The position numbers were made by a program, and so were the translations under genes. Below, piece after piece: positions 31,940 to 64,000 of a stretch of DNA of 64,000 bases. Positions within the stretch are counted from its first letter, which is position 1; each line of letters opens with the position of its first letter. Below the pieces are notes generated by a model, which saw nothing but the letters and a program-made list of their open reading frames with translations, had not been told where the DNA came from and ran no database searches. This DNA comes from Hanleya hanleyi (lineage: Eukaryota > Mollusca > Polyplacophora > Lepidopleurida > Hanleyidae), in the NCBI GenBank assembly GCA_036873755.1, contig JAVTVY010010452.1, positions 186,001 through 250,000 of the forward strand. Direction: 5' to 3'.

Positions 31940-32055
31940 TCACTGAGATTTGGGTTTGTCTGTAATTTTCCAGGCTCCTAAGAAGTAACGTAGTCGTATC
32001 AATAAGAGGTCTTTACCCATCTGTGCCCAGCTCCAGAATGGTATCATTTTGGAAC
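31940..32055 (-). CDS. ALG5: ALG5 terminal exon
   Basis: The acceptor (minus) is attcag before 32055 and the stop is at 31940-31942. Thirty-seven residues, SKMIPFWSWAQMGKDLLLIR then LRYFLGAWKITDKPKSQ, match the conserved C-terminus SK..PFWSW.QMG.DLL.IRLRY..GAW. Confidence 0.94.
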
Positions 32056-35000: not shown

Positions 35001-38000
35001 TTAAGGGTAGAAGGTTCTCTGGGCAGAAACGTCAACCTTAAACTAATATTTATTGAAGAAACTTCAATATGGCTCTACAATCTTCACAAACTTACCATCT
35101 TTCCACATGCATATTGGAGAAAATTAGCAAAGCAGCCTCCCTGGTCAACAGTTTGAAACCACACTGAGTATCCTTGACTCCTCGCACACACAGTATATAC
35201 ACCAGCATGTGAAAGCCATACATTAGAACAGTCCGGAAAAATGTTCTCTGTCAAAATAAAAACAGTCACAATATTGTAATGCACATCACATTTCACCACA
35301 GTGTTCTCCGTAACCATGTATGGTAATGGTACCATCTTAACTCAGATCAAAGATGTGTAAAACATGGCACAGAGGAAACACCTGGAGCTGTCCACAGTGA
35401 TATAACAATGGTACAGTGGTATACCACTGGTACAGAAATATCATAATGCTATAGTGGTGTACCACCAGTACAGATGTATCATAATGGTATAGTTGTATCA
35501 CACCGGTACAGATGTATCATAATGGTAAAGTGGTATACCACTGGTACAGATGTATCATAATGCTATAGTGGTGTACCACCAGTACAGATGTATCATAATG
35601 GTATAGTGATGTACCACCAGTACAGATGTATCATAATGGTATAGTGATGTACCACCACTACAGATGTATCATAATGCTATAGTGGTATACCACCGGTACA
35701 GATGTATCATTATGGTATAGTGGTATCACACTGGTACAGATGTATCATAATGGTATAGTGGTGTACCACCAGTACAGATGTATCATAATGGTATAGTGGT
35801 ATACCACCAGTACAGATGTATCATAATGGTATAGTGATGTACCACCAGTACAGATGTATCATAATGGTATAGTGGTATACCACCAGTACAGATGTATCAT
35901 AATGGTATAGTGATGTACCACCAGTACAGATGTATCATAATGGTATAGTGGTGTACCACCAGTACAGATGTATCATAATGGTATAGCGGTATACCACCAG
36001 TACAGATGTATCATAATGGTATAGCGATGTACCACCAGTACAGATGTATCATAATGGTATAGTGGTATACCACCAGTACAGATGTATCATAATGGTATAG
36101 TGGTGTACCACCAGTACAGATGTATCATAATGGTATAGTGGAATACCACCAGTACAGATGTATCATAATGGTATAGTGATGTACCACCAGTACAGATCTA
36201 TCATAATGGTATAGTGGTATACCACCAGTACAGATGTATCATAATGGTATAGTGATGTACCACCAGTACAGATGTATCATAATGGTATAGTGGTATCACA
36301 CCAGTACAGATGTATCATAATGGTATAGTGGTGTACCACCAGTACAGATGTATCATAATGGTATAGTGATGTACCACCAGTACAGATGTATCATAATGGT
36401 ATAGTGGTATCACACCAGTACAGATGTATCATAATGGTATAGTGGTGTACCACCAGTACAGATGTATCATAATGGTATAGTGGTGTACCACCAGTACAGA
36501 TGTATCATAATGGTATAGTGGTGTACCACCAGTACAGATGTATCATAATGGTATAGTGATGTACCATCAGTACAGATGTATCATAATGGTAAAGTGGTGT
36601 ACCACCAGTAAAGATGTATCATAATGGTATAGTGGTATCACACCAGTACAGATGTATCATAATGGTATAGTGGTGTACCACCAGTACAGATGTATCATAA
36701 TGGTATAGTGATGTACCATCAGTACAGATGTATCATAATGGTATAGTGGTGTACCACCACTACAGATGTATCATAATGGTATAGTGGTATCACACCATTA
36801 CAGATGTATCATAATGGTATAGTGATGTACCACCAGTACAGATGTATCATAATGGTATAGTGGTGTCACACCAGTACAGATGTATCATAATGGTACAGTG
36901 GTGTACCACCAGTACAGATGTATCAGAATGGTATAGTGATGTACCATCAGTACAGATGTATCATAATGGTACAGTGGTGTACCCCCAGTACAGATGTATC
37001 ATAATGGTATAGTGGTATACCACTGGTACAGATGTATCATAATGGTATAGTGGTGTACCCCCAGTACAGATGTATCATAATGGTATAGTGATGTACCACC
37101 AGTACAGATGTATCATAATGGTATAGTGGTGTACCCCCAGTACAGATGTATCATAATGGTATAGTGGTGTACCACCAGTACAGATGTATCATAATGGTAT
37201 AGTGGTGTACCACCAGTACAGATGTATCATAATGGTATAGTGATGTACCATCAGTACAGATGTATCATAATGGTATAGTGGTGTACCCCCCGTACAGATG
37301 TATCATAATGGTATAGTGGTATACCACTGGTACAGATGTATCATAATGGGGTGACTGAATAGAATTTAACGTCGCTTTCAACAATATTTCAGCTATATCA
37401 CGACGAACCAACTAAGCACCACCCAGCCCAGTTGTGTTCCTGCTACTTGTGTCATAATGGCATAGTGGTGTACCACCAGTACAGATGTATCATAATGGTA
37501 TAGTGGTGTACCACCAGTACAGATGTATCATAATGGTATAGTGGTATCACACCAGTACAGATGTATCATAATGGTATAGTGGTATACCACTGGTACAGAT
37601 GTATCATAATGGTATAGTGGTGTACCCCCAGTACAGATGTATCATAATGGTATAGTGGTCTCACACCAGTACAGATGTATCATAATGGTATAGTGGTGTA
37701 CCACCAGTACAGATGTATCATAATAGTATAGTGGTATCACACCAGTACAGATGTATCATAATGGTATAGTGGTGTACCACCAGTACAGATGTATCATAAT
37801 GGTATAGTGATGTACCATCAGTACAGATGTATCATAATGGTATAGTGGTGTACCACCAGTACAGATGTATCATAATGGTATAGTGGTGTACCACCAGTAC
37901 AGATGTATCATAATGGTATAGTGATGTACCACCAGTACAGATGTATCATAATGGTATAGTGGTGTACCACCAGTACAGATGTATCATAATGGTATAGTGA

Positions 38001-41000
38001 TCTACCATCAGTACAGATGTATCATAATGGTATAGTGGTATCACACCAGTACAGATGTATCATAATGGTATAGTGGTATACCACTGGTACAGATGTATCA
38101 TAATGGTATAGTGGTGTACCCCCAGTACAGATGTATCATAATGAGAGTATAGTGAAGTATCACGCACCGAGTACAGATGTATCATAATGGTATAGTGGTA
38201 TACCACTGGTACAAGATGTATCATAATGGTATAGTGGTGTACCCCGTACAGATGTATCATAATGGTATAGTGGTGCCACCAGTACAGATGCATCATAATG
38301 GTATAGTGGTGTACCCCCAGTACAGATGTATCATAATGGTATAGTGGTGTACACCAGTACAGATGTATCATAATGGTATAGTGGTATACCACTGGTACAG
38401 ATGTATCATAATGGTATAGTGGTGTACCCCCAGTACAGATGTATCATAATGGTATAGTGGTACAGATGTATCATAATGGTATAGTGGTGTACCACCAGTA
38501 CAGATGCATCATAATGGTATAGTGGTATCACACCAGTACAGATGTATCATAATGGTATAGTGGTGTACCACCAGTACAGATGTATCATAATGGTATAGTG
38601 ATGTACCATAAGTACAGATGTATCATAATGGCATAGTGGTGTACCACCAGTACAGATGCATCATAATGGTATAGTGGTATCACACCAGTACAGATGTATC
38701 ATAATGGTATAGTGGTGTACCACCAGTACAGATGTATCATAATGGTATAGTGGTGTCACACCAGTACAGATGTATCATAATGGTACAGTGGTGTACCACC
38801 AGTACAGATGTATCAGAATGGTATAGTGATGTACCATCAGTACAGATGTATCATAATGGTACAGTGGTGTACCCCCAGTACAGATGTATCATAATGGTAT
38901 AGTGGTATACCACTGGTACAGATGTATCATAATGGTATAGTGGTGTACCCCCAGTACAGATGTATCATAATGGTATAGTGATGTACCACCAGTACAGATG
39001 TATCATAATGGTATAGTGGTGTACCCCCAGTAAAGATGTATCATAATGGTATAGTGGTGTACCACCAGTACAGATGTATCATAATGGTATAGTGATGAAC
39101 CATCAGTACGGATGTATCATAATGGTATAGTGGTGTACCCCCAGTACAGATGTATCATAATGGTATAGTGGTATACCACTGGTACAGATGTATCATAATG
39201 GGTAGTGGTGTACCACCAGTACCAGATGTATCATAATGGTATAGTGGTATCACACCAGTACAGATGTATCATAATGGTATAGTGGTGTAACACCAGTACA
39301 GATGTATCATAATGGTATAGTGATGTACCATCAGTACAGATGCATCATAATGGTATAGTGGTGTACCACCACTACAGATGTATCATAATGGTATAGTGGT
39401 ATCACACCATTACAGATGTATCATAATGGTATAGTGGTGTACCACCAGTACAGATGTATCATAATGGTATAGTGGTGTCACACCAGTACAGATGTATCAT
39501 AATGGTACAGTGGTGTACCACCAGTACAGATATATCAGAATGGTATAGTGATGTACCATCAGTACAGATGTATCATAATGGTACAGTGGTGTACCCCCAG
39601 TACAGATGTATCATAATGGTATAGTGGTATACCACTGGTACAGATGTATCATAATGGTATAGTGGTGTACCCCCAGTACAGATGTATCATAATGGTATAG
39701 TGATGTACCAGCAGTACAGATGTATCATAATGGTATAGTGGTGTACCCCCAGTACAGATGTATCATAATAGTATAGTGGTGTACCACCAGTACAGATGTA
39801 TCATAATGGTATAGTGATGTACCATCAGTACAGATGTATCATAATGGTATAGTGGTGTACCCCCAGTACAGATGTATCATAATGGTATAGTGGTATACCA
39901 CTGGTATAGATGTATCATAATGGGGTGACAATAGAATTTAATGTCGCTTTCAACAATATTTCAGCTGTATCACGACGAACCAACTAAGCACCACCCAGCC
40001 CAGTTGTGTTCCTGCTACTTGTGTCATAATGGCATAGTGGTGTACCACCAGTACAGATGTATCATAATGGTATAATTGTGTACCACCAGTACAGATGTAT
40101 CATAATGGTATAGTGGTATCACACCAGTACAGATGTATCATAATGGTGTAGTGGTATACCACTGGTACAGATGTATCATAATGGTATAGTGGTGTACCCC
40201 CAGTACAGAGGTATCATAATGGTATAGTGGTATCACACCAGTACAGATTTATCATAATGGTATAATGGTGTACCACCAGTACAGATGTATCATAATAGTA
40301 TAGTGGTATCACACCAGTACAGATGTATCATAATGGTATAGTGGTGTACCACCAGTACAGATGTATCATAATGGTATAGTGATGTACCATCAGTACAGAT
40401 GTATCATAATGGTATAGTGGTGTACCACCAGTACAGATGTATCATAATGGTATAGTGGTGTACCACCAGTACAGATGTATCATAATGGTATAGTGATGTA
40501 CCACCAGTACAGATGTATCATAATGGTATAGTGGTATCACACCAGTACAGATGTATCATAATGGTATAGTGGTGTACCACCAGTACAGATGTATCATAAT
40601 GGTATAGTGATGTACCATCAGTACAGATGTATCATAATGGTATAGTGGTGTACCACCAGTACAGATGTATCATAATGGTATAGTGGTATCACACCAGTAC
40701 AGATGTATTATAATGGTACAGTGGTGTACCACCAGTACAGATGTATCATAATGGTATAGTGGTGTACCACCAGTACAGATGTATCATAATGGTATAGTGG
40801 TGTACCACCAGTACAGATGTATCATAATGGTATAGTGGTGTACCACCAGTACAGATGTATCATAATGGTATAGTGATGTACCATCAGTACAGATGTATCA
40901 TAATGGTATAGTGGTGTACCACCAGTACAGATGTATCATAATGGTATAGTGGTATCACACCAGTACAGATGTATCATAATGGTATAGTGGTGTACCACCA

Positions 41001-44000
41001 GTACAGATGTATCATAATGGTATAGTGATGTACCATCAGTACAGATGTATCATAATGGTATAGTGGTGTACCACCAGTACAGATGTATCATAATGGTATA
41101 GTGGTATCACACCAGTACAGATGTATCATAATGGTATAGTGGTGTACCACCAGTACAGATGTATCATAATGGTATAGTGGTGTCACACCAGTACAGATGT
41201 ATCATAATGGTACAGTGGTGTACCACCAGTACAGATGTATCAGAATGGTATAGTGATGTACCATCAGTACAGATGTATTATAATGGTACAGTGGTGTACC
41301 CCCAGTACAGATGTATCATAATGGTATAGTGGTATACCACTGGTACAGATGTATCATAATGGTATATTGGTGTACCCCCAGTACAGATGTATCATAATGG
41401 TATGGTGATGTACCACCAGTACAGATGTATCACAATGGTATAGTGGTGTACCCCCAGTACAGATGTATCATAATGGTATAGTGGTGTACCACCAGTACAG
41501 ATGTATCATAATGGTATAGTGATGTACCATCAGTACAGATGTATCATAATGGTATAGTGGTGTACCCCCAGTAAAGATGTATCATAATGGTATAGTGGTG
41601 TACCACCAGTACAGATGTATCATAATGGTATAGTGATGAACCATCAGTACAGATGTATCATAATGGTATAGTGGTGTACCCCCAGTACAGATGTATCATA
41701 ATGGTATAGTGGTATACCACTGGTGCAGATGTATCATAATGGGGTGAGTGAATAGAATTTAACGTCGCTTTCAACAATATTTCAGCTATATCACGACGAA
41801 CCAACTAAGCACCACCCAGCCCAGTTGTGTTCCTGCTACTTGTATCATAATGGCATAGTGGTGTACCACCAGTACAGATGTATCATAATGGTATAGTTGT
41901 GTGCCACCAGTACAGATGTATCATAATGGTATAGTGGTATCACATCAGTACAGATGTATCATAATGGCATAGTGGTATACCACTGGTACAGATGTATCAT
42001 AATGGTATAGTGGTGTACCCCCAGTACAGATGTATCATAATGGTATAGTGGTATCACACCAGTACAGATGTATCATAATGGTATAGTGGTATACCACTGG
42101 TACAGAGGTATCATAATGGTATAGTGGTGTACCCCCAGTGGAGATGTATCATAATGGTATAGTGGTGTACCACCAGTACAGATGCATCATAATGGTATAG
42201 TGGTATCACACCAGTACAGATGTATCATAATGGTATAGTGGTGTACCACCAGTACAGATGTATCATAATGGTATAGTGATGTACCATAAGTACAGATGTA
42301 TCATAATGGCATAGTGGTGTACCACCAGTACAGATGCATCATAATGGTATAGTGGTATCACACCAGTACAGATGTATCATAATGGTATAGTGGTGTACCA
42401 CCAGAACAGATGTATCATAATGGTATAGTGGTGTCACACCAGTACAGATGTATCATAATGGTACAGTGGTGTACCACCAGTACAGATGTATCAGAATGGT
42501 ATAGTGATGTACCATCAGTACAGATGTATCATAATGGTACAGTGGTGTACCCCCAGTACAGATGTATCATAATGGTATAGTGGTATACCACTGGTACAGA
42601 TGTATCATAATGGTATAGTGGTGTACCCCCAGTACAGATGTATCATAATGGTATAGTGATGTACCACCAGTACAGATGTATCATAATGGTATAGTGGTGT
42701 ACCCCCAGTAAAGATGTATCATAATGGTATAGTGGTGTACCACCAGTACAGATGTATCATAATGGTATAGTGATGAACCATCAGTACGGATGTATCATAA
42801 TGGTATAGTGGTGTACCCCCAGTACAGATGTATCATAATGGTATAGTGGTATACCACTGGTACAGATGTATCATAATGGGGTGAGTGAATAGAATTTAAC
42901 GTCGCTTTCAACAATATTTCAGCTATATCACGACGAACCAACTAAGCACCACCCAGCCCAGTTGTGTTCCTGCTACTTGTATCATAATGGCATAGTGGTG
43001 TACCACCAGTACAGATGTATCATAATGGTATAGTTGTGTACCACCAGTACAGATGTATCATAATGGTATAGTGGTATACCACTGGTACAGATGTATCATA
43101 ATGGTATAGTGGTGTACCCCCAGTACAGATGTATCATAATGGTATAGTGATGTACCACCAGTACAGATGTATCATAATGGTATAGTGGTGTACCCCCAGT
43201 AAAGATGTATCATAATGGTATAGTGGTGTACCACCAGTACAGATGTATCATAATGGTATAGTGATGAACCATCAGTACGGATGTATCATAATGGTATAGT
43301 GGTGTACCCCCAGTACAGATGTATCATAATGGTATAGTGGTATACCACTGGTACAGATGTATCATAATGGTATAGTGATGAACCATCAGTACAGATGTAT
43401 CATAATGGTATAGTGGTATACCACTGGTACAGATGTATCATAATGGTATAGTGATGTACCACCAGTACAGATGTATCATAATGGTATAGTGGTGTACCCC
43501 CAGTAAAGATGTATCATAATGGTATAGTGGTGTACCACCAGTACAGATGTATCATAATGGTATAGTGATGAACCATCAGTACAGATGTATCATAATGGTA
43601 TAGTGGTATACCACTGGTACAGATGTATCATAATGGTATAGTGGTGTACCCCCAGTACAGATGTATCATAATGGTATAGCGATGTACCACCAGTACAGAT
43701 GTATCATAATGGTATAGTGGTGTACCCCCAGTAAAGATGTATCATAATGGTATAGTGGTGTACCACCAGTACAGATGTATCATAATGGTATAGTGACGAA
43801 CCATCAGTACGGATGTATCATAATGGTATAGTGGTGTACCCCCAGTACAGATGTATCATAATGGTATAGTGGTATACCACTGGTACAGATGTATCATAAT
43901 GGGGTGAGTGAATAGAATTTAACGTCGCTTTCAACAATATTTCAGCTATATCACGACGAACCAACTAAGCACCACCCAGCCCAGTTGTGTTCCTGCTACT

Positions 44001-47000
44001 TGTATCATAATGGCATAGTGGTGTACCACCAGTACAGATGTATCATAATGGTATAGTTGTGTACCACCAGTACAGATGTATCATAATGGTATAGTGGTAT
44101 CACACCAGTACAGATGTATCATAATGGTATAGTGGTATACCACTGGTACAGATGTATCATAATGGTATAGTGGTGTACCCCCAGTACAGATGTATCATAA
44201 TGGTATAGTGGTATCACACCAGTACAGATGTATCATAATGGTATAGTGGTATACCACTGGTACAGATGTATCATAATGGTATAGTGGTGTACCCCCAGTA
44301 CAGATGTATCATAATGGTATAGTGGTGTACCACCAGTACAGATGTATCATTATGGTATAGGGATGTGCCACCTGTACAGATGTATCATAATGGTATAGTG
44401 GTGTACCCCCAGTACAGATGTATCATTATGGTATAGGGGTGTACCACCTGTACAGATGTATCGTAATGCAGGGTCCGAATTAGGAAATTTGTGATGACCT
44501 GCTATTTTTTTCCATCGAAAAAAAAATCGCAGGCCAAATCTAACATCACCTGCTATTTATGAAGTTGGACAGCTATTTTTTTTTTCTACATGTGCAAATC
44601 CACCAATAAGGCCTCTGTTAATTAATCTTTAGCTTCTCATGACCTTGGGAGGAAATTATGATGATGCTGAATTCTGTAATTATTAATTATTTGACTGCTT
44701 TAAGACATTGCAATAAAAAAGAAGTTTTATGTATGTGGTATTACGGTCTCCACTAAAACTTCGCTGACTGTCCAACTAAAAATGAGGTGGGCGTTTTTTA
44801 TATTTATTATTATTAATTTTTTTATTTGGCACACATGTTCTTTAAAACTGAGCACCAATGGAAAGTTGATGTCAACTTTGATATGTCAAAGACAACTATT
44901 TCCCCTAATTTCTACAATTAGAACTGCAAAAGCCTTGTTGACTGAAGCATGTGGACTATATATACTTATATTTATCAAAAGTCTCCCCTAATTGTAAATT
45001 ACTGATTGCAATAAATTAGAATCAGCCACCAGAGTCCTGTTGGAATTATCAATTAACTGAAATGTCTGCTTAGAAAAACTTCAGCTTGTGAATAGAAGCC
45101 CAGGAAAAGAGGCCAACAATATTATTTACCATCGGTACCAACTGGAAAAAAAACAACAGATAGTCCGATTCTGTTTCGTAACAGGTCCGACTTTTGCATG
45201 CACCGGACCACCGCGCATGAATTGACGCGCAGCAACCGGAAGTGAAATTGGCGCGGGAAATGTTGACAGAGAAATCCAACAACAATGGCCAAAGATCGGC
45301 TTGGAATAAATTTTCAATGGATTATTTCTTGGATTGTCCGTTGCTTCAGATAGATCTAGACTCCTAAAAGGTATTTACGAAAATTGATCGCATTTTATCG
45401 TTTTTGCTGGATGAAATCCTACTTTCCGCATGCGACAGATAGATTTTATTGCAACTTGTCACGGGAAAAATTCACTTGCCGGCGGCGGTAGGTAGGCAGG
45501 CGTTATTTCGACCGTTGCCTTGTTCTGCAGATTTTATTTTTTTAGTGGAGTATTTGTACGATGATATCGGCCACGAAGAATTCAATTTACGTTGTGTGCA
45601 ACGAAAACAAAATTATATATAGGTAGGAAACTATTAGAATGGCCAGGAAAATTATGGCCTGCTACTTTCGGTCGAGATTTTTTTTCTTAGCAGGTCATTT
45701 TCCACATCGCCTGCTTTGTCAAAATTTTGGCCTGCTTTTAGCCAATAGCAGGCCGCCATTTCGAACGCTGTAATGGTATAGTGGTGTACCACCAGTACAG
45801 ATGTATCATAATGGTATAGTGATATACCACTGGTACAGATGTATCATAATGGTATAGTGGTATCACACCAGTACAGATGTATCATAATGGTATAGTGGTG
45901 TACCACCAGTACAGATGTATCATAATGGTATAGTGATATACCACTGGTACAGATGTATCATAATGGTATAGTGGTATCACACCAGTACAGATGTATCATA
46001 ATGGTATAGTGGTATCACACCAGTACAGATGTATCATAATGGTATAGTGGTGTACCACCAGTACAGATGTATCATAATGGTATAGTGATATACCACTGGT
46101 ACAGATGTATCATAATGGTATAGTGGTATCACACCAGTACAGATGTATCATAATGGTATAGTGATATACCACTGGTACAGTTGGTTGGTTGGTTGAATTT
46201 TAACGTCACACCTAACCTTATTGGTCACACGGCGACGATGACCCAAACAAACATACCCTAGCAAAACCCTAACCCTAACAAAAACCTAACCAAAACTACA
46301 AAATTTTGAATTTCGAATTTTGAAAATTAGGCTCTACAGACACTGATCACAATGGATCTACAGACACTGATCACAATGGATCCTCAGAGAGCCCAATCTG
46401 TTTGGTACTTTAATCTACCTCCTGTGCCAGACAAACATGGTAAAAACCATGCTGCCCTAAGCCGGAGGGCACCACTGGTACAGATGTATCATATTGGTAT
46501 AGTGGTGTACCCCCAGTACAGATGTATCATAATGGTATAGTGGTGTACCCCCAGTACAGATGTATCATAATGGTATAGTGGTGTACCACCAGTACAGATG
46601 TATCATAATGGTATAGTGATGTACCACCAGTACAGATGTATCATAATGGTATAGTGGTGTACCACCAGTACAGATGTATCATAATGGTATAGTGGTGTAC
46701 CACCAGTACAGATGCATCATTATGGTATAGTGGTATACCACCAGTACAGATGTATCATAATGGTATAGTGGTGTACCCCCAGTACAGATGCATCATATTG
46801 GTATAGTGGTGTACCCCCAGTACAGATGTATCATTATGGTATAGTGGTGTACCACCAGTACAGATGTATCATAATGGTATAGTGGTGTACCCCCAGTACA
46901 GATGTATCATTATGACATAGTGGTGTACCACCTGTACAGATGTATCATAATGATATAGTGGTGTACCACCAGTACAGATGTATCATAATGGTATAGTGGT

Positions 47001-50000
47001 GTACCACCAGTACAGATGTATCATAATGGTATAGCGGTATCACACCAGTACAGATGTATCATAATGGTATAGTGGTGTACCACCAGTACAGATGTACCAT
47101 AATGGTATAGTGGTATCACACCAGTACAGATGTATCATAATGGTATAGTGGTGTACCACCAGTACAGATGTATCATAATGGTATAGTGGTATCACACCAG
47201 TACAGATGTATCATATTGGTATAGTGGTGTACCATCAGTACAGAAGTATCATAATGGTACAGTGGTGTACCACCAGTACAGATGTACCATAATGGTATAG
47301 TGGTGCACCACCAGTACAGATGCATCATAATGGTATAGTGGTATACCACCAGTACAGATGTATCATAATGGTATAGTGGTGTACCATCAGTACAGATGTA
47401 TCATAATGGTATACCACCAGTACAGATGTATTATAATGGTACAGTGGTATCACACCAGTACAGATGTATCATAATGGTATAGTGGTATCACACCAGTACA
47501 GATGTATCATAATGGTATAGTGGTGTACCACCAGTACAGATGTACAATAATGGTATAGTGGTATCATAATGGTATAGTGGTATCACACCAGTACAGATGT
47601 ATCATAATGGTATAGTGGTGCATCACCAGTGCAGATGCATCATAATGGTATAGTGGTATCACACCAGTACAGATGTATCATAATGGTATAGTGGTGTACC
47701 ACCAGTACAGATGTATCATAATGGTATAGTGGTGTACCACCAGTGCAGATGTATCATAATGGTATAGTGGTGTACCACCAGTACAGATGTATCATAATGG
47801 TATAGTGGTGTACCCCCAGTACAGATGTATCATAATGGTATAGTGATGTACCATCAGTACAGATGTATCATAATGGTATAGTGGTGTACCACCAGTACAG
47901 ATGTATCATAATGGTATAGTGGTGTACCACCAGTAAAGATGTATCATAATGGTATAGTGGTATCACACCAGTACAGATGTATCATAATGGTATAGTGGTG
48001 TACCCCCAGTACAGATGTATCATAATGGTATAGTGGTGTACCCCCAGTACAGATGTATCATAATGGTATAGTGGTGTACCACCAGTAAAGATGTATCATA
48101 ATGGTATAGTGGTATCACACCAGTACAGATGTATCATAATGGTATAGTGGTGTAACACCAGTACAGATGTATCATAATGGTATAGTGATGTACCATCAGT
48201 ACAGATGCATCATAATGGTATAGTGGTGTACCACCACTACAGATGTATCATAATGGTATAGTGGTATCACACCATTACAGATGTATCATAATGGTATAGT
48301 GGTGTACCACCAGTACAGATGTATCATAATGGTATAGTGGTGTCACACCAGTACAGATGTATCATAATGGTACAGTGGTGTACCACCAGTACAGATATAT
48401 CAGAATGGTATAGTGATGTACCATCAGTACAGATGTATCATAATGGTACAGTGGTGTACCCCCAGTACAGATGTATCATAATGGTATAGTGGTATACCAC
48501 TGGTACAGATGTATCATAATGGTATAGTGGTGTACCCCCAGTACAGATGTATCATAATGGTATAGTGATGTACCCCCAGTGCAGATGTATCATAATGGTA
48601 TAGTGGTGTACCACCAGTACAGATGCATCATAATGGTATAGTGGTATCACACCAGTACAGATGTATCATAATGGTATAGTGGTGTACCACCAGTACAGAT
48701 GTATCATAATGGTATAGTGATGTACCATAAGTACAGATGTATCATAATGGTATAGTGGTGTACCACCAGTACAGATGCATCATAATGGTATAGTGGTATC
48801 ACACCAGTACAGATGTATCATAATGGTATAGTGGTGTACCACCAGTACAGATGTATCATAATGGTATAGTGGTGTCACACCAGTACAGATGTATCATAAT
48901 GGTACAGTGGTGTACCACCAGTACAGATGTATCAGAATGGTATAGTGATGTACCATCAGTACAGATGTATCATAATGGTACAGTGGTGTACCCCCAGTAC
49001 AGATGTATCATAATGGTATAGTGGTATACCACTGGTACAGATGTATCATAATGGTATAGTGGTGTACCCCCAGTACAGATGTATCATAATGGTATAGTGA
49101 TGTACCACCAGTACAGATGTATCATAATGGTATAGTGGTGTACCCCCAGTAAAGATGTATCATAATGGTATAGTGGTGTACCACCAGTACAGATGTATCA
49201 TAATGGTATAGTGATGAACCATCAGTACGGATGTATCATAATGGTATAGTGGTGTACCCCCAGTACAGATGTATCATAATGGTATAGTGGTATACCACTG
49301 GTACAGATGTATCATAATGGGGTGAGTGAATAGAATTTAACGTCGCTTTCAACAATATTTCAGCTATATCACGACGAACCAACTAAGCACCACCCAGCCC
49401 AGTTGTGTTCCTGCTACTTGTATCATAATGGCATAGTGGTGTACCACCAGTACAGATGTATCATAATGGTATAGTTGTGTACCACCAGTACAGATGTATC
49501 ATAATGGTATAGTGGTATCACACCAGTACAGATGTCTCATAATGGTATAGTGGTATACCACTGGTACAGATGTATCATAATGGTATAGTGGTGTACCCCC
49601 AGTACAGATGTATCATAATGGTATAGTGGTATCACACCAGTACAGATGTATCATAATGGTATAGTGGTATACCACTGGTACAGATGTATCATAATGGTAT
49701 AGTGGTGTACCCCCAGTACAGATGTATCATAATGGTATAGTGGTGTACCACCAGTACAGATGTATCATTATGGTATAGGGATGTGCCACCTGTACAGATG
49801 TATCATAATGGTATAGTGGTGTATCCCCAGCACAGATGTATCATTATGGTATAGGGGTGTACCACCTGTACAGATGTATCGTAATGGTATAGTGGTGTAC
49901 CACCAGTACAGATGTATCATAATGGTATAGTGATATACCACTGGTACAGATGTATCATAATGGTATAGTGGTATCACACCAGTACAGATGTATCATAATG

Positions 50001-53000
50001 GTATAGTGATATACCACTGGTACAGTTGGTTGGTTGGTTGAATTTTAACGTCACACCTAACCTTATTGGTCACACGGCGACGATGACCCAAACAAACATA
50101 CCCTAGCAAAACCCTAACCCTAACAAAAACCTAACCAAAACTACAAAATTTTGAATTTCGAATTTTGAAAATTAGGCTCTACAGACACTGATCACAATGG
50201 ATCTACAGACACTGATCACAATGGATCCTCAGAGAGCCCAATCTGTTTGGTACTTTAATCTACCTCCTGTGCCAGACAAACATGGTAAAAACCATGCTGC
50301 CCTAAGCCGGAGGGCACCACTGGTACAGATGTATCATATTGGTATAGTGGTGTACCCCCAGTACAGATGTATCATAATGGTATAGTGGTGTACCCCCAGT
50401 ACAGATGTATCATAATGGTATAGTGATGTACCACCAGTACAGATGTATCATAATGGTATAGTGGTGTACCACCAGTACAGATGTATCATAATGGTATAGT
50501 GGTGTACCACCAGTACAGATGCATCATTATGGTATAGTGGTATACCACCAGTACAGATGTATCATAATGGTATAGTGGTGTACCCCCAGTACAGATGTAT
50601 CATATTGGTATAGTGGTGTACCCCCAGTACAGATGTATCATTATGGTATAGTGGTGTACCACCAGTACAGATGTATCATAATGGTATAGTGGTGTACCCC
50701 CAGTACAGATGTATCATTATGACATAGTGGTGTACCACCTGTACAGATGTATCATAATGGTATAGTGGTGTACCACCAGTACAGATGTATCATAATGGTA
50801 TAGTGGTGTACCACCAGTACAGATGTATCATAATGGTATAGTGGTATCACACCAGTACAGATGTATCATAATGGTATAGTGGTGTACCACCAGTACAGAT
50901 GTACCATAATGGTATAGTGGTATCACACCAGTACAGATGTATCATAATGGTATAGTGGTGTACCACCAGTACAGATGTATCATAATGGTATAGTGGTATC
51001 ACACCAGTACAGATGTATCATAATGGTATAGTGGTGTACCATCAGTACAGATGTATCATAATGGTACAGTGGTGTACCACCAGTACAGATGTACCATAAT
51101 GGTATAGTGGTGCACCACCAGTACAGATGCATCATAATGGTATAGTGGTATACCACCAGAACAGATGTATCATAATGGTATAGTGGTGTACCATCAGTAC
51201 AGATGTATCATAATGGTATACCACCAGTACAGATGTATTATAATGGTACAGTGGTATACCACCAGTACAGATGTATCATAATGGTATAGTGGTGTACCCC
51301 CAGTACAGATGTATCATAATGGTATAGTGGTGTACCATCAGTACAGATGTATCATAATGGTATACCACCAGTACAGATGTATTATAATGGTACAGTGGTA
51401 TACCACCAGTACAGATGTATTATAATGGTACAGTGGTATACCACCAGTACAGATGTATCATAATGGTATAGTGGTGTACCCCCAGTACAGATGTATCATA
51501 ATGGTATAGTGGTGTACCACCAGTACAGATGTATCATAATGGTATAGTGGTGTACCACCAGTACAGATGTATCATAATGGTATAGTGGTGTACCCCCAGT
51601 ACAGATGTATCATAATGGTATAGTGGTGTACCACCAGTACAGATGTATCATAATGGTATAGTGGTGTACCCCCAGTACAGATGTATCACATGTGGCTGTC
51701 GCCATCGGGACCCCTCGGGCCGGGCCCAGAGCAATTGTAGAAATAATGTTTCTGACCCCAACAACTTACATATTTGGGGTGGGCATAATTTTACCTGTAT
51801 GATATAGATCATAGACAGACAAAAAAATATAGCAATAGAGCAGTGATTACCTATAGTAGATGTAGTCGAACGATTACTGTCTATTCACAGCAATCCACAC
51901 AGGTTTGTGTGAACTCCTGAAAAACACATTCCATGGCACCGACTTTCAATAGGCTTCTGGTATTGGCTGTATTAAACAACTGTATGAAGTTTCATTGTTG
52001 TGAGTGAAGGACTTTTTGAGATAATGTGTTTACAAGGATATGGACCAACAGACATGTATAAAGGGGCAGAACTCCTGAAAAACACATCCGATTACACCGA
52101 CTTTCAATAGGCTTCTGGTACTGGCTGTATTAAACAACTGTATGAAGTTTCATTGTTGTGAGTGAAGGACTTTTTGAGATAATGTGTTTACAAGGATAAA
52201 AACAGACAGACATGTATAAAGGGGCATAACTCCTGAAAAACACATCCAATGGCACCGACTTTCAATAGGCTTCTGGTACTGGCTGTATTAAACAACTGTA
52301 TGAAGTTTCATTGTTGTAAGTGAAGGACTTTTTAAGATAATGTGTTTACAATGATATGATGGACAGACGGACAGACGGACGGACGGACAGACGACGGAGG
52401 CAACGACAATACCGCTCGGGCAGAATCTGCCCGAGAGGTAATAATGGTATAGTGGTGTACCACCAGTACAGATGTATCATAATGGTATAGTGGTGTACCA
52501 CCAGTACAGATGTATCATAATGGTATAGTGATGTATCACCAGTACAGATGTATCATAATGGTATAGTGGTATACCACCAGTACAGATGTATCATAATGGT
52601 ATAGTGATGTACCACCAGTACAGATGTATCATAATACTATAGTGGTGTACCACCAGTACAGATGTATCATAATGCAGGGTTATATGCAGGATTTTCGCCA
52701 AAGTCCTTGTTTGAAAATAGCTTTGTCGTTATTTGAAAAAACTAATTTTGCAAAATGGCTAATATCACTCAAATGGAGTTGAACATGCCAAAACATTGTC
52801 AGTTTGTGTTCTTTGAGTGTTTTACACAAACTATTGTGCCTTTTGCCCCTGATATTCACTTTTAATCTAGGAGTTTTCTAAAATAAAGCCATTTGATTTT
52901 GTGGAGAAATGGTCATTTGATTTTATAGTTGTGTCCTTTTTAAGGACGCTGTGAGACCCTGTATCTAACTCTGTAATGGTATAGTGGTATACCACCAGTA

Positions 53001-56000
53001 CAGATGTATCATAATGGTATATTGGTGTACCACCAGTACAGATGTATCATAATGGTACAGTGGTGATAGTGGTGTACCATCAGTACAGATGCATCATAAT
53101 GGTGTAGTGGTGATAGTGGTGTACCATCAGTACAGATGTATCATAGTGGTGATAGTGGTGTACCATCAGTACAGATGTATCATAATGGTATAGTGGTGAT
53201 AGTGGTGTACCATCAGTACAGATGTATCATAATGGTATAGTGGTGATAGTTGTGTACCATCAGTACAGATGTATCATAATGGTGTAGTGGTGTACCACCA
53301 GTATAGATGTATCATAATGGTATAGTGGTGGTATCATAATGGGATGAATGAGTGAATATGGATGAGTGATGGTAGTTTAACATCCCTTTCAACAAGCTTA
53401 CAGCCTTATCACAATGTTGGGATCCTGTTCCCTTTACACCTGGGAACCCCACAGGTACTAGGGTCCTATTCCTTTTTTACATCAGGGTCTCCCATCATGG
53501 GTGGGGTCCTATTCCTTTTTACATCTGGAAACCCCACAGATGCAAAAGTTAGTCATCGCTTAAGACAAGCTGTCTCAGGATCTAAGGCCCTAAATTCTTG
53601 AACAAAGTAAACAAGCTACAGAACCACCACAGGAGCCCAACAATTCTAAATAACATAGGGAAAACAACAGGATTCTTGCCCTCAAAGCCTCATCAGACAG
53701 AATTCTTGGATCTATTTTTGCATTGTGTGGCCATACTATCAAATCTGTACAATTCAATAACACACTTCAAATACATCTACCATCTTGATAGTTATCCAAT
53801 AATCTGGCAGAAGAATTTATAGGACTGCTTTCTCTGAGTTCATACCCAACTCATTGTCACTATTTGTTACATGGAAATTTGATGCGAAGAATCAAATGTT
53901 GTTTGTGACACATAACGAGTTCTTCTCGTGAGATTCCACGAGATCCCGCGACACTGTTTACATACGGGTATTTCCCTTTGTCTGAAACGTCTTTCATCGT
54001 CGCCATATTTGATCGGTCCATGCTGAGCTCTATGCACATTAGTACAGTGCAGATCAGCTTAATCTTCCAATTAGTGAACAGGGTTTACGCACTGATGGCG
54101 CGCCAACGTGCTGGCCTAATCACTAAGACTTATTACACCCCCCATGATGTGACCCTTGCCGCCACGCGCCGGTAGAATATAGTCCGGTCAAACCACTGAA
54201 CCATTGTAAGCATGTCGGCGGTAAACAAAGGCTCCCCGCTGGGGCGCTTGCCGGATTGCGCGCTAACAGCCGTCACCGCTTAAAACTGAATTGTTTTCAA
54301 AGAGTTCCCCTCTGGCGGTGTACGGCAAGAACACAATCTATTCTACAGTTTAAATTACTGGCTAAGTAATTAAAAAAATATATAGAAGATTTGACTTCTT
54401 CAATAAGAATGTTGTAAATGATTATCTATCATTTTTTGTTTGCGCTCCAAGGAAACTCGGTCGTCTTGTGAACATTCGGTTGAGACTACGAATAATCTTC
54501 ATTAACAAAAAGTTTCGCCAAAGATAGCTTAAAGTATGCCTAAATATATTATCAGAATTCATAAAACGTTGGTGTGTGCAAATTGCGAAGGCCGCCTCCT
54601 CTTTCAGAACGGCCAGTAAAACGGTTGAACGTAACATTTCAAATGAATACAGCTTCGTATAAATTCACACACGGGCGAGTCGAGGTCATAATCGGGGCAA
54701 CATGCAGTGCTCGGTCAGACTAGTTGTCTCTTTGGCTTGTCTTGTTACAACCGCCTAACCAAAATATACACAGAAATTCAAAAGATCAATTAGCCCCTTA
54801 CAGAGAATGACAAATACTTGTATATGCTCTTTATTCGTTTTCCGCCCGACTGTTAAAGGTTGCACACGAAACTTCCGATGAGGAAATAAGAATTAACAAG
54901 TATTTATGGCCCACACATCGTTCCAGCTAAATAACAAAAAAGAAACAATAACAGAGATTTCTACCTAAATAATAAGTTAATGCCATTTCATTTCTTTTCA
55001 AATGAGACACAGACGCGCATTTTGTTGGACGAAAGCGGGATATCGCTTTACCCCGTCAGAGAGAGAATACACTGTTATGTTTATATTATCCACTTGTTTA
55101 GGCCAAACTTAACGAGATGATTAACCTTTACAGTGTTGTTTTCTTGCTGACAATATAACATCCGTTATTCTGTTCGACAGGAAGTATGCATTAACACATA
55201 TGAAATGTAGGTCTTGATGTTGGGGACGGAGGGAGGGACTTCAGCCATAAATAATGTGGGTCCACTGTTCGTTTTACCATTCTCACCTCGTCTCCCATTA
55301 CAGAAATCACTCTACCTGGTCTTACTGAATATCTCACTTACTATCGGCAAAACATATTTTTGTGCATAAATAACCTGCGATGATATACGTATACGTACCA
55401 GAAAGAGTCATGCGAACTTGTACATAGCGATTCTTATTTACTTCTATTTATATCTCCTACTAATCTCTCATTGTTATTTATTATTTATTCATTTATTTAG
55501 TTACATATTTAGCGCTGGAAAAGGTATTCAAAAAACAAAGAAATGTACCGCGAAATTCAAATAAAACATTGAGTTGATGGGCCGCGAAATCCGAATGGGA
55601 AGCGGCCCTTAAACTACAATTTCAATCAAAAAAACGTACATGTACTCAAGTGAAATCGTATTGAACTACCGTCGACTGTACTGTTTTCATAGTAATATGG
55701 ATTATAACTTAAAGTGAAAGATTTTCCCATCAGTCGGTGTCCTTCCTGCCGAATCAAACTGTCGGTTCAGTAAAATATAACTTCTGCGCAGTAATATGTT
55801 GCAAGATTTCAAACACGTGTTCTCATTTTCCCGCGAAAAGCGACGTGGGGATAAACTGGTCGCGCGGGGCTATATTTAGCATGTTCAGACAGCATCCAAC
55901 ACTTGTACCAAAGTTCGTCTGGATAGCGTAGTTGTGTGTAGACGCCAGATTTCATGAGGGTTGATCTATTTCACAGAGGAGTGAGTTCTGTTTTATTGGT

Positions 56001-59000
56001 GACAATCCGCAGAAAGGGATTACCAGACTTCAATCAAATTAATCAACCGATTTCTAGTAAAAAGGTACGGGTATTGCATAATTCGTTTCATCGGTTCTTG
56101 TCCCACTGATTAAATATTTATACACTGCATAATCCGGTAGTAAAATCCCGGACATTTACTCTTGAATGGTCAAAATTAACACAATTTGCAAGAATTTTTG
56201 AATATATAAAAACGAATGACTTGAACTTGCATATCTGTATGAGGAGCGGCCGTAAGATGAAGCTTCCAATAAACAAATACCCACACTTTAATACCAGAAA
56301 CGCTATTCCTTGATACGCGCAAGTCTGGGTCAACTTTGAAAGCAGGTGTCCGACGAAGCACAAATTACAATCCATTTTGCAAGCGGTGTTTATGATTAAA
56401 AAAAATATTGAATCTATTTCCTTTCACAAATTTTTAGATGGAATGCAAATACGCTTGATCGAGGTCGACGTGTTCGCCAGTAACACAAATTCATACACCT
56501 GATGTTATTTAATAGGTATGAATTACATGCAGACATTCGTGCCGATTAACGCCACGTGGACTCCCAACTGATTTTCTTGAGCTCGCTAACAAAGACCTCG
56601 CTAGCGGGCTCTTCCCGCAGCTCGCTTCCAGCCATTGTCTGACCGTGCTGATAGCGCGCGGCCTATGTTCAATCATGTCGACGGACTACATTCAACAGAG
56701 TTAGAACAATGGCCAGGCGATAATCATGGGCATTGGCGCACTATACCTTTGTGTTGGCACGCTTCGTTTGCGCGCCGTTGGTGCGCCAAAATTAACCTTT
56801 CAGCTGGCCTGAACTGTACAATCCAGTTTTTTAAGCTATTTTGCGTTACCCACCACCAACCCCTAAATTCACCACTAATTGTTCATTGGGGACTTCACTA
56901 TACGGGGGGACTTCACTATATTTACATACGTTCATTTACCCCCAAGATGGATTCCAGCACACTCTTCATGCACTCAATCATACATAATCTTACATCATCA
57001 TGCATAATAGACAGCTCCCGCAGTCTATTTAGGCAGCTCCCGCTGCACTTTGCTTAGGTACATATATAATAGACACACTCTGCTTAGGTACATGCATAAT
57101 AGACGGCTCCTGCGGTCTATTTAGGCAGCTCCCGCTGCACTCTGCTTAGGTACATGTATAATAGACGGCTTCCGCGGTCTATTTAGGCAGCTCCGGCTGC
57201 ACTCTGCATTAGGTACATGTATAATAGACGGCTCCCGCGGTCTATTTAGGCAGCTCCCGCTGCACTCTGCTTAGGTACATGTATGATAGACGGCTCCCGC
57301 GGTCTATTTAGGCAGCTCCTGCTGCACTCTGCTTAGGTACATGTATAATTGCTCCTGCTTCTTCCATGGGATTATACGTAATGTGTATATGCTATGCCTA
57401 TGGGGCAAACAGTTATAGCCATTGGTATTATCCGTCGATCTGTTTGTAATCTTGCATAACGATGGTGAGCTGTGTGCCCCCATAAGCCAAAGTGGGTATA
57501 AAGAATAAAGAATATATATCAAACTTAACTCGTCGTGTTGTGTATCATAAATGAATGGTTGTGTATGAAAAATTTGTTAGTTTTTACTCGGGCAAATGTT
57601 GGTTTTATGCTTTTTGAAACAATTGAAACAGAAACTCAAACAAGCCTCTAAAATACAATAGGGTGTGAGAAATGGAATCTTAAAATTGCACAATTGCACA
57701 ATTGCTCTCTGTGAAAACAGTGTTCGCATTTATGATCAGAGAACAGATGGGGACACTTTAGTGTGTAATACTGTAATCATAATATTGTAATAACCAGAAT
57801 ATGAGCTCTGGTTACACAAGCAGTTCAACAACTACATTCGCAACAGTTTGCGATCAAGGCTACACCCCAATGACAACAGATCAACATATTTTCTCACTCG
57901 AACTGAGATCTGGAGGTCTTTTCAACGGAAGTCCTCAACTGCAAATGACTGAATTTCCCGAACAATGGCACCACAATGATTGCTAGGATGACTTTACCTC
58001 AAGATATTAAATATTTGGTCCACTCTGTCCCCTATTCTGACAGGTAAGACACACAACAAATCAGACTAGGGTCCAATATGTACATAATCAGCTTCTTTAC
58101 TGAAACTGGCTGAAAAATCATTGAGAGACAATTTCAAACTTGCACTCACCTCTGCTATAGACTGTTCTTCTAGATGAGATCTTGATCCACATACTACAGC
58201 CATATTGTCCTTAAATGATTAACACAATAGTTAACATTACACTGGAGAATTATGACAGTGTAAGTACAGTAATACAAGTACATATAAACTAACCCATTCT
58301 TCTCCATTGATCAGAGATGAGTACAGCATTGTCACAATGGAGGAAACACTGAACTCCTCCACCATTATACCCTTTCTTCTCTGTCAGGGCCATATCCAGA
58401 GTCATTTTGATACCTGTTAAGGGCTATGAGCGCCCAAACTTTACAGCCAGTATATTAATGCTTTTTACATAAAAATGCGCCCAAATACATATAAATGCGT
58501 CAAAAAAAAGGCAAAAAAGTCAAGAAAGGTCTGTATGCATGAGTAATGTAATACTAGGTGTATATGTATGAGTAATGTAATACTAGGTCTGTATGGAATT
58601 GTAATGTAATACTAGGTGTGTATGCATGAGTAATGTAATACTAGATGTGTATGCATGAGTAATGTAATACTAGGTGTGTATGCATGAGTAATGTAATACT
58701 AGGTGTGTATGCATGAGTAATGTAATACTAGGTGTGTATGCATGAGTAATGTAATACTAGGTGTGTATGCATGAGTAATGTAATACTAGGTGTGATTGCA
58801 TGAGTAATGTACTACTAGGTGTGTATGCATGAGTAATGTAACACTAGATCTGTATGCATACGTAATGTAATACTAGGTCTGTATGCATGAGTAATGTAAT
58901 ACTAGGTGTGTATGCATGAGTAACGTAATACTAGGTGTGTATGCATGAGTAGTGTAATACTAGGTGTGTATGCATGAGTAACGTAATACTAGGTGTGTAT

Positions 59001-63000: not shown

Positions 63001-64000
63001 ACCACCAGTTATGGTGTATGTGCAGGGTATGCTGGTGACAACCAGCTATGGTGTATGTGCAGGGTATGGTGACCACCAGTTATGGTGTATGTCCAGGGTA
63101 TGCTGGTGACAACCAGCTATGGTGTATGTGCAGGGTATGGTGGTGACCACCAGTTATGGTGTATGTGCAGGGTATGGTGGTGACCACCAGCTATGGTGTA
63201 TGTGCAGGGTATGGTGACCACCAGTTATGGTGTATGTGCAGGGTATGGCGGTGACCACCAGCTATGGTGTATGTGCAGGGTACGCTGGTGACCACCAGCT
63301 ATGGTGTATGTGCAGGGCATGGTGACCACCAGTTATGGTGTATGTGCAGGGTATGGTGGTGACCACCAGCTATGGTGTATGTGCAGGGTGTGCTGGTGGC
63401 CACCAGCCATGGTGTATGTGCAGGGTATGCTGGTGGCCACCAGCTATGGTGTATGCGCAGGGTATGGTGACCACCAGTTATGGTGTATGTGCAGGGTATG
63501 GTGGTGACCACCAGTTATGGTGTATGTGCAGGGTATGGTGGTGACCACCAGTTATGGTGTATGTGCAGGGTATGGTGGTGACCACCAGCTATGGTGTATG
63601 TGCAGGGTATGGTGGTGACCACCAGCTATGGTGTATGTGCAGGGTATGGTGGTACCACCAGTTATGGTATAGTGCAGGGTATGGTGGTGACCACCAGCTA
63701 TGGTGTATGTGCAGGGTATAGTGGTGACCACCAGCTGTGTATGTGCAGGTATGGGGACCACCAGTTATGGTGTATGTGCAGGGTATGGTGGTGACCACCA
63801 GTTATGGTGTATGTGCCGGGTATGGTGGTGACCACCAGCTATGGTGTATGTGCAGGGTATGGTGACCACCAGCTATGGTGTATGTGCAGGGTATGGCGGT
63901 GAGCACCAGCTATGGTGTATGTGCAGGGTATGGTGGTGACCACCAGCTATGGTGTATGTGCAGGGTATGGTGGTGACCACCAGCTATGATGTATGTGCAG
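60064..64000. repeat. 37-bp minisatellite, diverged on the left, running off the window
   Basis: The canonical unit is gtatgtgcagggtatggtgg then tgaccaccagctatggt, 37 bp, with a common 34-bp form lacking one gtg. From 60064 to ~60500 the units are strongly diverged (tgtatgcacaaagtaagttg then gtgacc). From ~60500 on they are nearly uniform. A diverged block (60264-60560) recurs at 61492-61790. A LINE fragment splits the array at 61882-62360. Each unit centres on a ggtggtgaccacc-type dyad. Both strands give incidental open frames. Confidence 0.94.
61882..62360 (+). mobile_element. 5'-truncated non-LTR retrotransposon (LINE 3' end)
   Basis: Inserted in the 37-bp array between gtatg and tgcagg with no clear target duplication. 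The first ~320 bp encode in one frame TKLRISNHKLEIETGRYHKP, then RNGRTCQFCVGSIGDEYHFV and MHC, up to a stop at 62199-62201. This is the C-terminal zinc-knuckle region (C..C...DE.HF...C) found after the reverse transcriptase in many LINEs. About 160 bp of 3' UTR and a cgaatctgaatctg tail follow. The clade was not determined. Confidence 0.82.

What the first reader, a model, noticed from the sequence alone, without database searches (positions are those of the whole stretch)
35248..58149. An ~18-kb satellite array sits inside one ALG5 intron
The exons at 58150-58209 and 35096-35247 are consecutive in ALG5 and join in phase, so the intervening 22.9 kb must be transcribed and spliced out. About 18 kb of it is a 38-bp array. 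A satellite of this size inside a housekeeping glycosylation gene is unusual and could affect splicing or allele length.
Basis: partly seen in the sequence, partly recalled or inferred. Interest (0 to 1): 0.75.

Follow-up and report, generated by a model that had tools for sequence, protein, structure and literature searches.

The report
Giant private minisatellite inside ALG5 intron
In what is most likely a bivalve mollusc, an intron of an ordinary sugar-attachment gene has swollen to 23 kb because a 38-letter sequence, almost unknown elsewhere in its genome, multiplied there into an 18-kb array, and four further introns of the gene carry other arrays; it is a large, clean example of a known kind of repeat.

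Summary
Exons 58150-58209 and 35096-35247 are consecutive, in-phase ALG5 exons with GT..AG borders. With 50 kb taken from beyond the window, nine ALG5 exons read as one 304-residue frame with the expected glycosyltransferase domain; only the first exon was not located. All 6 ALG5 protein matches in the 2.48-Gb assembly lie in this locus.

The intron is 22,902 bp. The array spans 35407-53330 (17,924 bp), of which about 14.4 kb is 38-bp repeat. The rest is eleven inclusions, several of them copies made when blocks of the array were duplicated.

The label 'satellite' needs correcting. The repeat is private to this intron: 181 of 181 exact 28-mer matches and 364 of 367 relaxed matches genome-wide lie here. 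It is a giant intronic minisatellite born in place. Nor is it alone: five consecutive ALG5 introns each carry a 27-38-bp array, and the gene body is 67% tandem repeat against 10-17% in the flanks and in 16 sampled stretches.

Hairpins are not beyond chance, strict G-quadruplex motifs are absent, and the transcribed strand is poor in splice-like words. I read it as tolerated, spliced-out DNA grown by block duplication. An effect on splicing or allele length is untested.

The parts
59817..59930 (-). ALG5 exon (GMFVARGKSLLFADADGASKF...), 114 nt, phase 0
   Evidence: GTAG acceptor and GTGAGT donor, in phase; tblastn with four ALG5 proteins
58210..59816 (-). ALG5 intron of 1,607 bp; 1,049 bp is a 29-bp tandem array (58527-59575)
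58150..58209 (-). ALG5 exon, 60 nt (DNMAVVCGSRSHLEEQSIAE), phase 0
35248..58149 (-). ALG5 intron of 22,902 bp that holds the 38-bp array
   Evidence: splice borders and phase; 17,716 bases in TRF arrays
35407..53330 (.). 38-bp minisatellite array, span 17,924 bp, about 14.4 kb repeat; consensus AATGGTATAGTGGTGTACCACCAGTACAGATGTATCAT
   Evidence: private to this locus
37350..37448 (.). T1, a 97-99-bp inclusion; six copies in the array starting at 37350, 39924, 41743, 42880, 43903 and 49321, all at the same place of the monomer; four of six copies identical, and these four have an exact 12-bp flanking repeat (one mismatch in the other two)
   Evidence: similar strings of monomer subtypes before five of six copies
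46181..46469 (.). 289-bp inclusion with 13-bp flanking repeat (SINE-like by my reading); identical second copy at 50026-50314
44469..45770 (.). 1,302-bp transposon-like insertion, CAG...CTG ends, TAATG on both sides; matching empty site in the duplicated block at 49878
51689..52440 (-). about 750-bp Helentron/HINE-like element: 158-bp repeats x2.8, GTCC-type microsatellite, terminal palindrome
   Evidence: sequence, TRF, compared with PMC7492417
52675..52973 (.). 299-bp transposon-like insertion with CAG...CTG ends, TAATG on both sides
35096..35247 (-). ALG5 exon, 152 nt (RTFFRTVLMYGFHMLVYILCV...HVER)
34403..34488 (-). ALG5 exon, 86 nt
31940..32055 (-). last ALG5 coding exon, ends with TGA
60508..64000 (.). 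37-bp array in the next upstream ALG5 intron (intron 59931-68017 on the window scale; array sequence runs on to about 67949, past the window end)

Best explanation
A unique stretch of an ALG5 intron began to repeat as a 38-bp unit. It then grew in place, by unequal exchange or slippage and by copying whole blocks of many monomers, to about 380 units over 17.9 kb. Mobile elements dropped into it at different times; older ones were copied along with their neighbours, younger ones were not. RNA polymerase reads through the array and the spliceosome removes it as part of one 22.9-kb intron. The array is most likely tolerated, not used. Shown: gene structure, single ALG5 locus in this assembly, privacy of the repeat, block copying. 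Inferred from sequence: the order of insertions. Inferred only: transcription, removal by splicing, neutrality.
For: Nine in-phase ALG5 exons with GT and AG at all eight introns, one 304-residue frame; 68-77% identity over 298-303 residues to the 12 relatives compared, glycosyltransferase 2 domain above its cut-off, and 6 of 6 genome-wide ALG5 protein matches on this contig. In-place birth: exact 28-mer 181 forward and 0 reverse in 2.48 Gb, all 181 in the window; 22-mer with up to 2 mismatches 366 + 1 genome-wide, 364 of them in the array, chance expectation about 0.6. Block copying: six T1 copies at one monomer position, four identical; the subtype string cABPDP lies within the 18 units before five of six T1 copies, out of seven occurrences in the array; seven listed duplications of 1.0-1.7 kb at 95-96% identity; two identical 289-bp inclusions. 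Order: the 1,302-bp insertion at 44469 is absent from the matching place of the duplicated block, 49878. Tolerance: 297 of 352 units have no AG on the ALG5 strand; 2 GTRAG donor-like words in 17.9 kb of array on that strand (8 on the other strand), against 8 in the 4.8 kb of the same intron to the right of the array.
Against: No RNA was available, so splicing across the array is inferred. The lack of AG in the consensus unit is expected in about 10% of shuffles, so it is no proof of selection for tolerance. Three of 367 relaxed matches lie outside the array, at places the capped list did not show. Five consecutive introns with arrays is more than one accident and hints at a shared local cause that this account does not name. 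In a 38-bp tandem array, flanking repeats around an inclusion can also come from the array's own period.
Confidence: 0.82

Rival explanations
1. The array is an assembly artefact: repeat sequence mis-joined into ALG5 or wrongly expanded there.
For: Long arrays are hard to assemble, and sequencing reads were not available.
Against: Nine ALG5 exons in order and on one strand of one 474-kb contig; no N in the window or the 50 kb beyond it; the unit hardly exists anywhere else it could have come from; internal landmarks (six T1 copies, a filled and an empty insertion site) differ along the array. The exact length remains unverified.
Confidence: 0.06
2. It is one locus of a dispersed satellite family, or the central repeat of a Helentron-type element that brought it in.
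For: Oyster satellite-like arrays are often carried by Helentron elements (PMC7492417, abstract and passages); such an element lies inside the array.
Against: The unit is private to the locus. The Helentron-like element has its own 158-bp repeats and interrupts the array as an insertion. The C. gigas central repeats studied have mostly 140-180-bp units and on average up to about 5 copies per array.
Confidence: 0.04
3. The array acts on ALG5 in cis: its length tunes splicing, transcription speed or chromatin, as intronic VNTRs are reported to do in human TERT and ABCA7.
For: Precedents: 38-bp TERT VNTR6-1 (PMC11830802, abstract and passages) and the ABCA7 VNTR (PMC5954066, abstract); a C. elegans minisatellite over-represented near alternative splicing regions (PMC4039745, abstract). 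A 22.9-kb intron in a single-copy gene is a plausible target.
Against: The TERT effect goes with G-quadruplexes; this array has no strict motif on either strand, though a loose two-G pattern matched 4 times on the plus strand. Folding is no better than shuffles as RNA (z -0.24) or DNA (z -0.56) for the one 152-nt stretch folded. Few splice-like words on the transcribed strand.
Confidence: 0.1
4. This ALG5 copy is dead and another copy serves the cell, so the array is in no working gene.
For: Exon 1 (about 20 residues) was not located.
Against: Open 304-residue frame, GT and AG at all eight introns, 68-77% identity to 12 relatives, domain intact by Pfam; no ALG5 match outside this contig.
Confidence: 0.02

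Closest known systems
Human TERT intron 6 VNTR6-1 (PMC11830802; abstract and passages seen)
   Same: Intronic tandem array with a 38-bp unit in a protein-coding gene.
   Different: 24-66.5 copies against about 380 here; the TERT unit is G-rich and predicted to form G-quadruplexes, no strict motif here; unit sequences unrelated by eye; effect on splicing reported there, untested here.
Human ABCA7 intronic VNTR (PMC5954066 abstract; 10,000 bp from the abstract start of PMC6857246 in a search listing)
   Same: Multi-kilobase intronic minisatellite.
   Different: Length variation and exon skipping measured there; here one assembly only.
Drosophila kl-3 and kl-5 satellite-filled giant introns (PMC6508621; abstract)
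   Same: Introns made mostly of tandem repeats.
   Different: Megabases of simple satellite in genes of spermatogenesis, shown to be transcribed, with a special expression programme; here 18 kb, a private unit, an ordinary gene, no RNA data.
Cg_HINE Helentron central repeats of oyster (PMC7492417; abstract and passages)
   Same: Tandem repeats dispersed in a bivalve genome; a HINE-like element sits in this array.
   Different: Those are dispersed, mostly 140-180-bp units with up to about 5 copies per array on average; this is private, 38 bp, about 380 copies.
Satellites in HSP70 introns of Mytilus galloprovincialis (Kourtidis 2006; title seen only in reference lists)
   Same: Tandem repeats inside introns of a bivalve gene.
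   Different: Paper itself not read; no comparison of size or sequence was possible.

Membership tests
Intronic minisatellite / VNTR | Head-to-tail units of roughly 10-100 bp (range recalled) | tested here: met
   38-bp unit, 352 of 378 intervals exactly 38 bp
Intronic minisatellite / VNTR | Lies within an intron of a protein-coding gene | tested here: met
Intronic minisatellite / VNTR | Locus-specific unit | tested here: met
   181 of 181 exact and 364 of 367 relaxed genome-wide matches in this array
Intronic minisatellite / VNTR | Copy number varies among individuals (needed for the name VNTR) | not testable with these tools
   one assembly only
Satellite DNA family | Abundant repeat present at many loci or in megabase heterochromatic blocks | tested here: not met
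   the assembly may miss unassembled blocks
ALG5 (dolichyl-phosphate beta-glucosyltransferase) | Sequence similarity over the whole coding region with in-phase exons | tested here: met
   nine exons, 304 residues, 68-77% identity to 12 relatives; alignment of the last 175 residues. First exon not found.
ALG5 (dolichyl-phosphate beta-glucosyltransferase) | Pfam glycosyltransferase 2 domain | tested here: met
   304 residues: PF00535, 81.6 bits against cut-off 23.3; the C-terminal 175 residues alone give no Pfam match
Helentron/HINE (inclusion 51689-52440) | Central repeats, GTCC-type microsatellite and a palindrome near an end | tested here: met
   158-bp x2.8 and GGAC/GACA run, palindrome read from sequence, features from PMC7492417
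Helentron/HINE (inclusion 51689-52440) | Insertion at a TT dinucleotide without target duplication | tested here: inconclusive
   junctions read fit A/T or T/G, not clearly TT

The most novel reading that the evidence does not exclude
ALG5 in this species is a nursery of minisatellites: something local, such as its chromatin, replication or transcription state, made five consecutive introns each start their own tandem array, so that a small housekeeping gene became two-thirds tandem repeat without losing its reading frame or splice sites, and array size may now vary enough among animals to change how fast or how well ALG5 is made.
Probability: 0.15. Interest if true: 0.62.

Novelty: new member of a known kind. 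Interest (0 to 1): 0.42.

Why it matters
It is a clean case for asking how minisatellites begin and grow: one private unit, one locus, almost no relatives elsewhere to confuse the history, internal landmarks that order the events, and a single-copy gene whose product can be measured. The run of five arrays in adjacent introns, against 10-17% tandem sequence in the flanks and samples, makes 'why this gene' a testable question. It also warns that what looks like a satellite in a bivalve intron can be a locus-private minisatellite.

Tried and rejected
Hairpin or cruciform function of the GTGGTGTACCAC core: the longest perfect arm of the commonest unit is reached by 250 of 500 shuffles, and that of the best of six subtypes by 42 of 500; RNA and DNA folding z-scores -0.24 and -0.56 for one 152-nt stretch. 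Rejected. Differences between units do cluster in that core (mean entropy 0.47 against 0.14 bits); of the 63 units with A at position 24, 32 also carry T at position 32, but copies share descent, so this is not counted as evidence for pairing.

G-quadruplex: 0 strict motifs in the 38-, 37- and 29-bp arrays on either strand; a loose two-G pattern, counted on the plus strand only, matched 4, 4 and 0 times. Rejected.

Kinship of the 38-bp and 37-bp units: 2 of 1000 shuffles as good with two periods (seven units compared with the 38-bp one), 18 of 1000 with about 1.5 periods, among 10 pairs tried. Left open. The 29/28 pair scored 29 of 1000, not counted.

Selection for lack of splice signals: the AG-free unit has about 0.10 chance in shuffles. 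Not claimed.

Sequence of the repeats in print: 5 strings of 19-20 letters, 0 papers. Monomer in viral contigs and genome contigs: 0 and 0. Rfam and tRNA scans of the window: 0 and 0. Solved structures for the 175-residue ALG5 part: 0.

Genome-wide copy number of the 37-bp unit was asked for and never answered, nor was that of T1. That the 37-, 29-, 28- and 27-bp units are private too is therefore not shown.
Full report
What is there. The window is the stretch 186001-250000 of a 473,947-bp contig in a 2.48-Gb assembly of 52,793 contigs. The 10 ALG5 proteins I aligned to the gene come from eight named bivalves, one abalone and one unnamed source; the closest is Ruditapes at 80% (names). The organism is therefore most likely a bivalve; no call named it.

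The gene. On the minus strand five exons in the window (59817-59930, 58150-58209, 35096-35247, 34403-34488, 31940-32055) join in phase, with GT donors and AG acceptors, into 175 residues ending in a stop. A database search with these residues gave 1,132 proteins, 120 of them listed; those listed with a functional name are ALG5 (dolichyl-phosphate beta-glucosyltransferase). A second search seeded with the best of them gave mollusc ALG5s among its first rows. Ten chosen proteins align with the 175 residues; the only gaps are single-residue ones near residue 35 and at the C-terminal end, none of them at the 58150/35247 junction. I then took the next 50 kb of the contig. Four further exons lie there, in order and on the same strand, at 68018-68110, 69354-69422, 71362-71408 and 73862-74039 on the window scale. 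The nine exons read as one frame of 304 residues, 68-77% identical to the 12 relatives compared and with the glycosyltransferase 2 domain well above its cut-off. The first exon, about 20 residues, was not located. A whole-genome search with a Ruditapes ALG5 scored 10 candidates and gave 6 matches, all on this contig, so this is the only ALG5 seen in the assembly.

The intron and the array. The intron 35248-58149 is 22,902 bp. The 38-bp array spans 35407-53330, 17,924 bp. Anchoring on a conserved 17-mer gave 379 anchors; 352 of 378 intervals are 38 bp, and these 352 units average 95% identity to their consensus. Eleven inclusions interrupt it, about 3,520 bp in all, leaving about 14,400 bp of repeat. 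Neighbouring units are no more alike than distant ones (mean difference 0.093 at lag 1, 0.083 at lag 100), which fits copying of blocks rather than of single units.

History read from the array. T1, a 97-99-bp inclusion, occurs six times, always at the same place of the monomer; four of the six copies are identical and have an exact 12-bp flanking repeat, with one mismatch in the other two. The monomer subtype string cABPDP lies within the 18 units before five of the six T1 copies, out of seven occurrences in the array, so T1 most likely entered once and was then copied with its surroundings. A 289-bp inclusion with a 13-bp flanking repeat is present in two identical copies 3,845 bp apart. A 1,302-bp transposon-like element at 44469, with TAATG on both sides, is missing at the matching place of the duplicated block, 49878; most simply it came after that duplication. 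A 299-bp element at 52675 also has TAATG on both sides. An element of about 750 bp at 51689-52440 has the parts described for oyster HINE elements: central repeats, GTCC-type microsatellite, terminal palindrome. Caution: in a 38-bp tandem array, flanking repeats can also come from the array's own period. The names SINE-like and transposon-like are my reading and rest on no database match.

The repeat is private. The exact 28-mer GTACAGATGTATCATAATGGTATAGTGG occurs 181 times on the plus strand and 0 times on the minus strand of the whole assembly; the window alone holds 181. With a 22-mer and up to two mismatches the assembly holds 366 + 1 matches, of which 364 are in this array; about 0.6 would be expected by chance. 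The three others lie at places that the capped list did not show. The tool states that these counts are whole, and also warns that counts of repeats can be lower bounds. So the unit was most likely born and multiplied here. It is not a member of a dispersed satellite family, with the proviso that unassembled blocks cannot be excluded.

It is not alone. Five consecutive introns of the eight seen carry tandem arrays: 27-bp (658 of 1,243 bp), 28-bp (1,324 of 1,939), 37-bp (7,505 of 8,087), 29-bp (1,049 of 1,607) and 38-bp (17,716 of 22,902, TRF bases of all periods from 10 bp); the other three carry none (units). The gene body is 67% tandem repeat against 12% to its left and 17% in 40 kb to its right, and 10.3% in 144,619 bases from 16 stretches of other contigs (four of the 20 stretches asked for did not exist). 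Among the two longest arrays printed for each of those 16 stretches, only one has a unit of 20-60 bp and 600 bp or more (L018). Against a strict hot-spot reading: one sampled stretch, L016, is 59% tandem repeat, mostly a 5.3-kb array of 178-bp units, and a RhoGAP gene on the plus strand of this window also has an array between its exons. So large arrays are not unique to ALG5, and part of this is a property of the genome or region.

How it works, as far as the sequence says. If ALG5 is made, the array is transcribed and removed with the intron. On the ALG5 strand 297 of 352 units have no AG, and the array holds 2 GTRAG words in 17.9 kb (8 on the opposite strand), against 8 in the 4.8 kb of the same intron to its right. 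It offers the splicing machinery little to misuse, which fits tolerance; the AG-free consensus is not improbable (about 0.10). Hairpins and G-quadruplexes do not stand out. I see no sign of a function.

Compared with what is known. Multi-kilobase intronic minisatellites are known in people: ABCA7 (abstract), where length goes with exon skipping, and TERT VNTR6-1, also a 38-bp unit, where G-quadruplex content goes with splicing (abstract and passages). Fly spermatogenesis genes kl-3 and kl-5 have megabase satellite introns (abstract). In Daphnia pulex tandem repeats are densest in introns, which that paper calls rare in animals, and strandedness in introns is reported (PMC3152781, abstract). 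In oysters, the most abundant satellite-like arrays are carried by Helentron elements, with units mostly 140-180 bp (abstract and passages), and one oyster satellite has a standalone array of about 40 kb (passage). Satellites in mussel HSP70 introns are known to me only as a title in reference lists. This case is a new, large, private member of the intronic minisatellite kind. Its unusual side is five arrays in a row in one gene.

Verdict. Observation confirmed, with the 18 kb being the span. Interpretation partly supported: ALG5 intron yes, satellite no, functional effect untested.

Noticed in passing
60508-64000, continuing to about 67949 on the window scale (L002): 37-bp array (unit GTGTATGTGCAGGGTATGGTGGTGACCACCAGCTATG) filling most of the next upstream ALG5 intron (TRF 7,505 of 8,087 bp), possibly a distant relative of the 38-bp unit; 145-bp higher-order period.
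   Followed up: partly
58527-59575; 68399-69135 and 69495-70818 on the window scale (L002): Three further arrays (29, 27 and 28 bp) in three more ALG5 introns, making five introns in a row with arrays.
   Followed up: partly
13931-24201, plus strand: RhoGAP-domain gene convergent with ALG5; three pieces match different parts of PF00620, one above and two just below the curated cut-off. A 28-bp array at 14898-15610 lies between its exons.
   Followed up: partly
7247-8061: 161-bp repeats x4.8 followed by a GACGGACA microsatellite: looks like a second HINE/pearl-type element.
   Followed up: no
61887-62198, plus strand: Open frame that reads to me like the end of a retrotransposon polyprotein inside the 37-bp array; no Pfam match.
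   Followed up: no
44469 and 52675: Two different CAG...CTG-ended elements sit at the same place of the 38-bp monomer with the same TAATG flanking repeat, as if that word is a preferred target.
   Followed up: no
53331-53460: The right edge of the array begins with sequence similar to T1 (alignment score 43 against a maximum of 27 in 500 shuffles).
   Followed up: partly
52972-53330: At its right end the array switches partly to 47-bp units, made by an internal repeat of ATAGTGGTG.
   Followed up: no
27493-28735 and 22893-23306: Further arrays (29 bp, and a different 38-bp unit with no significant similarity to the ALG5 one) outside ALG5.
   Followed up: partly
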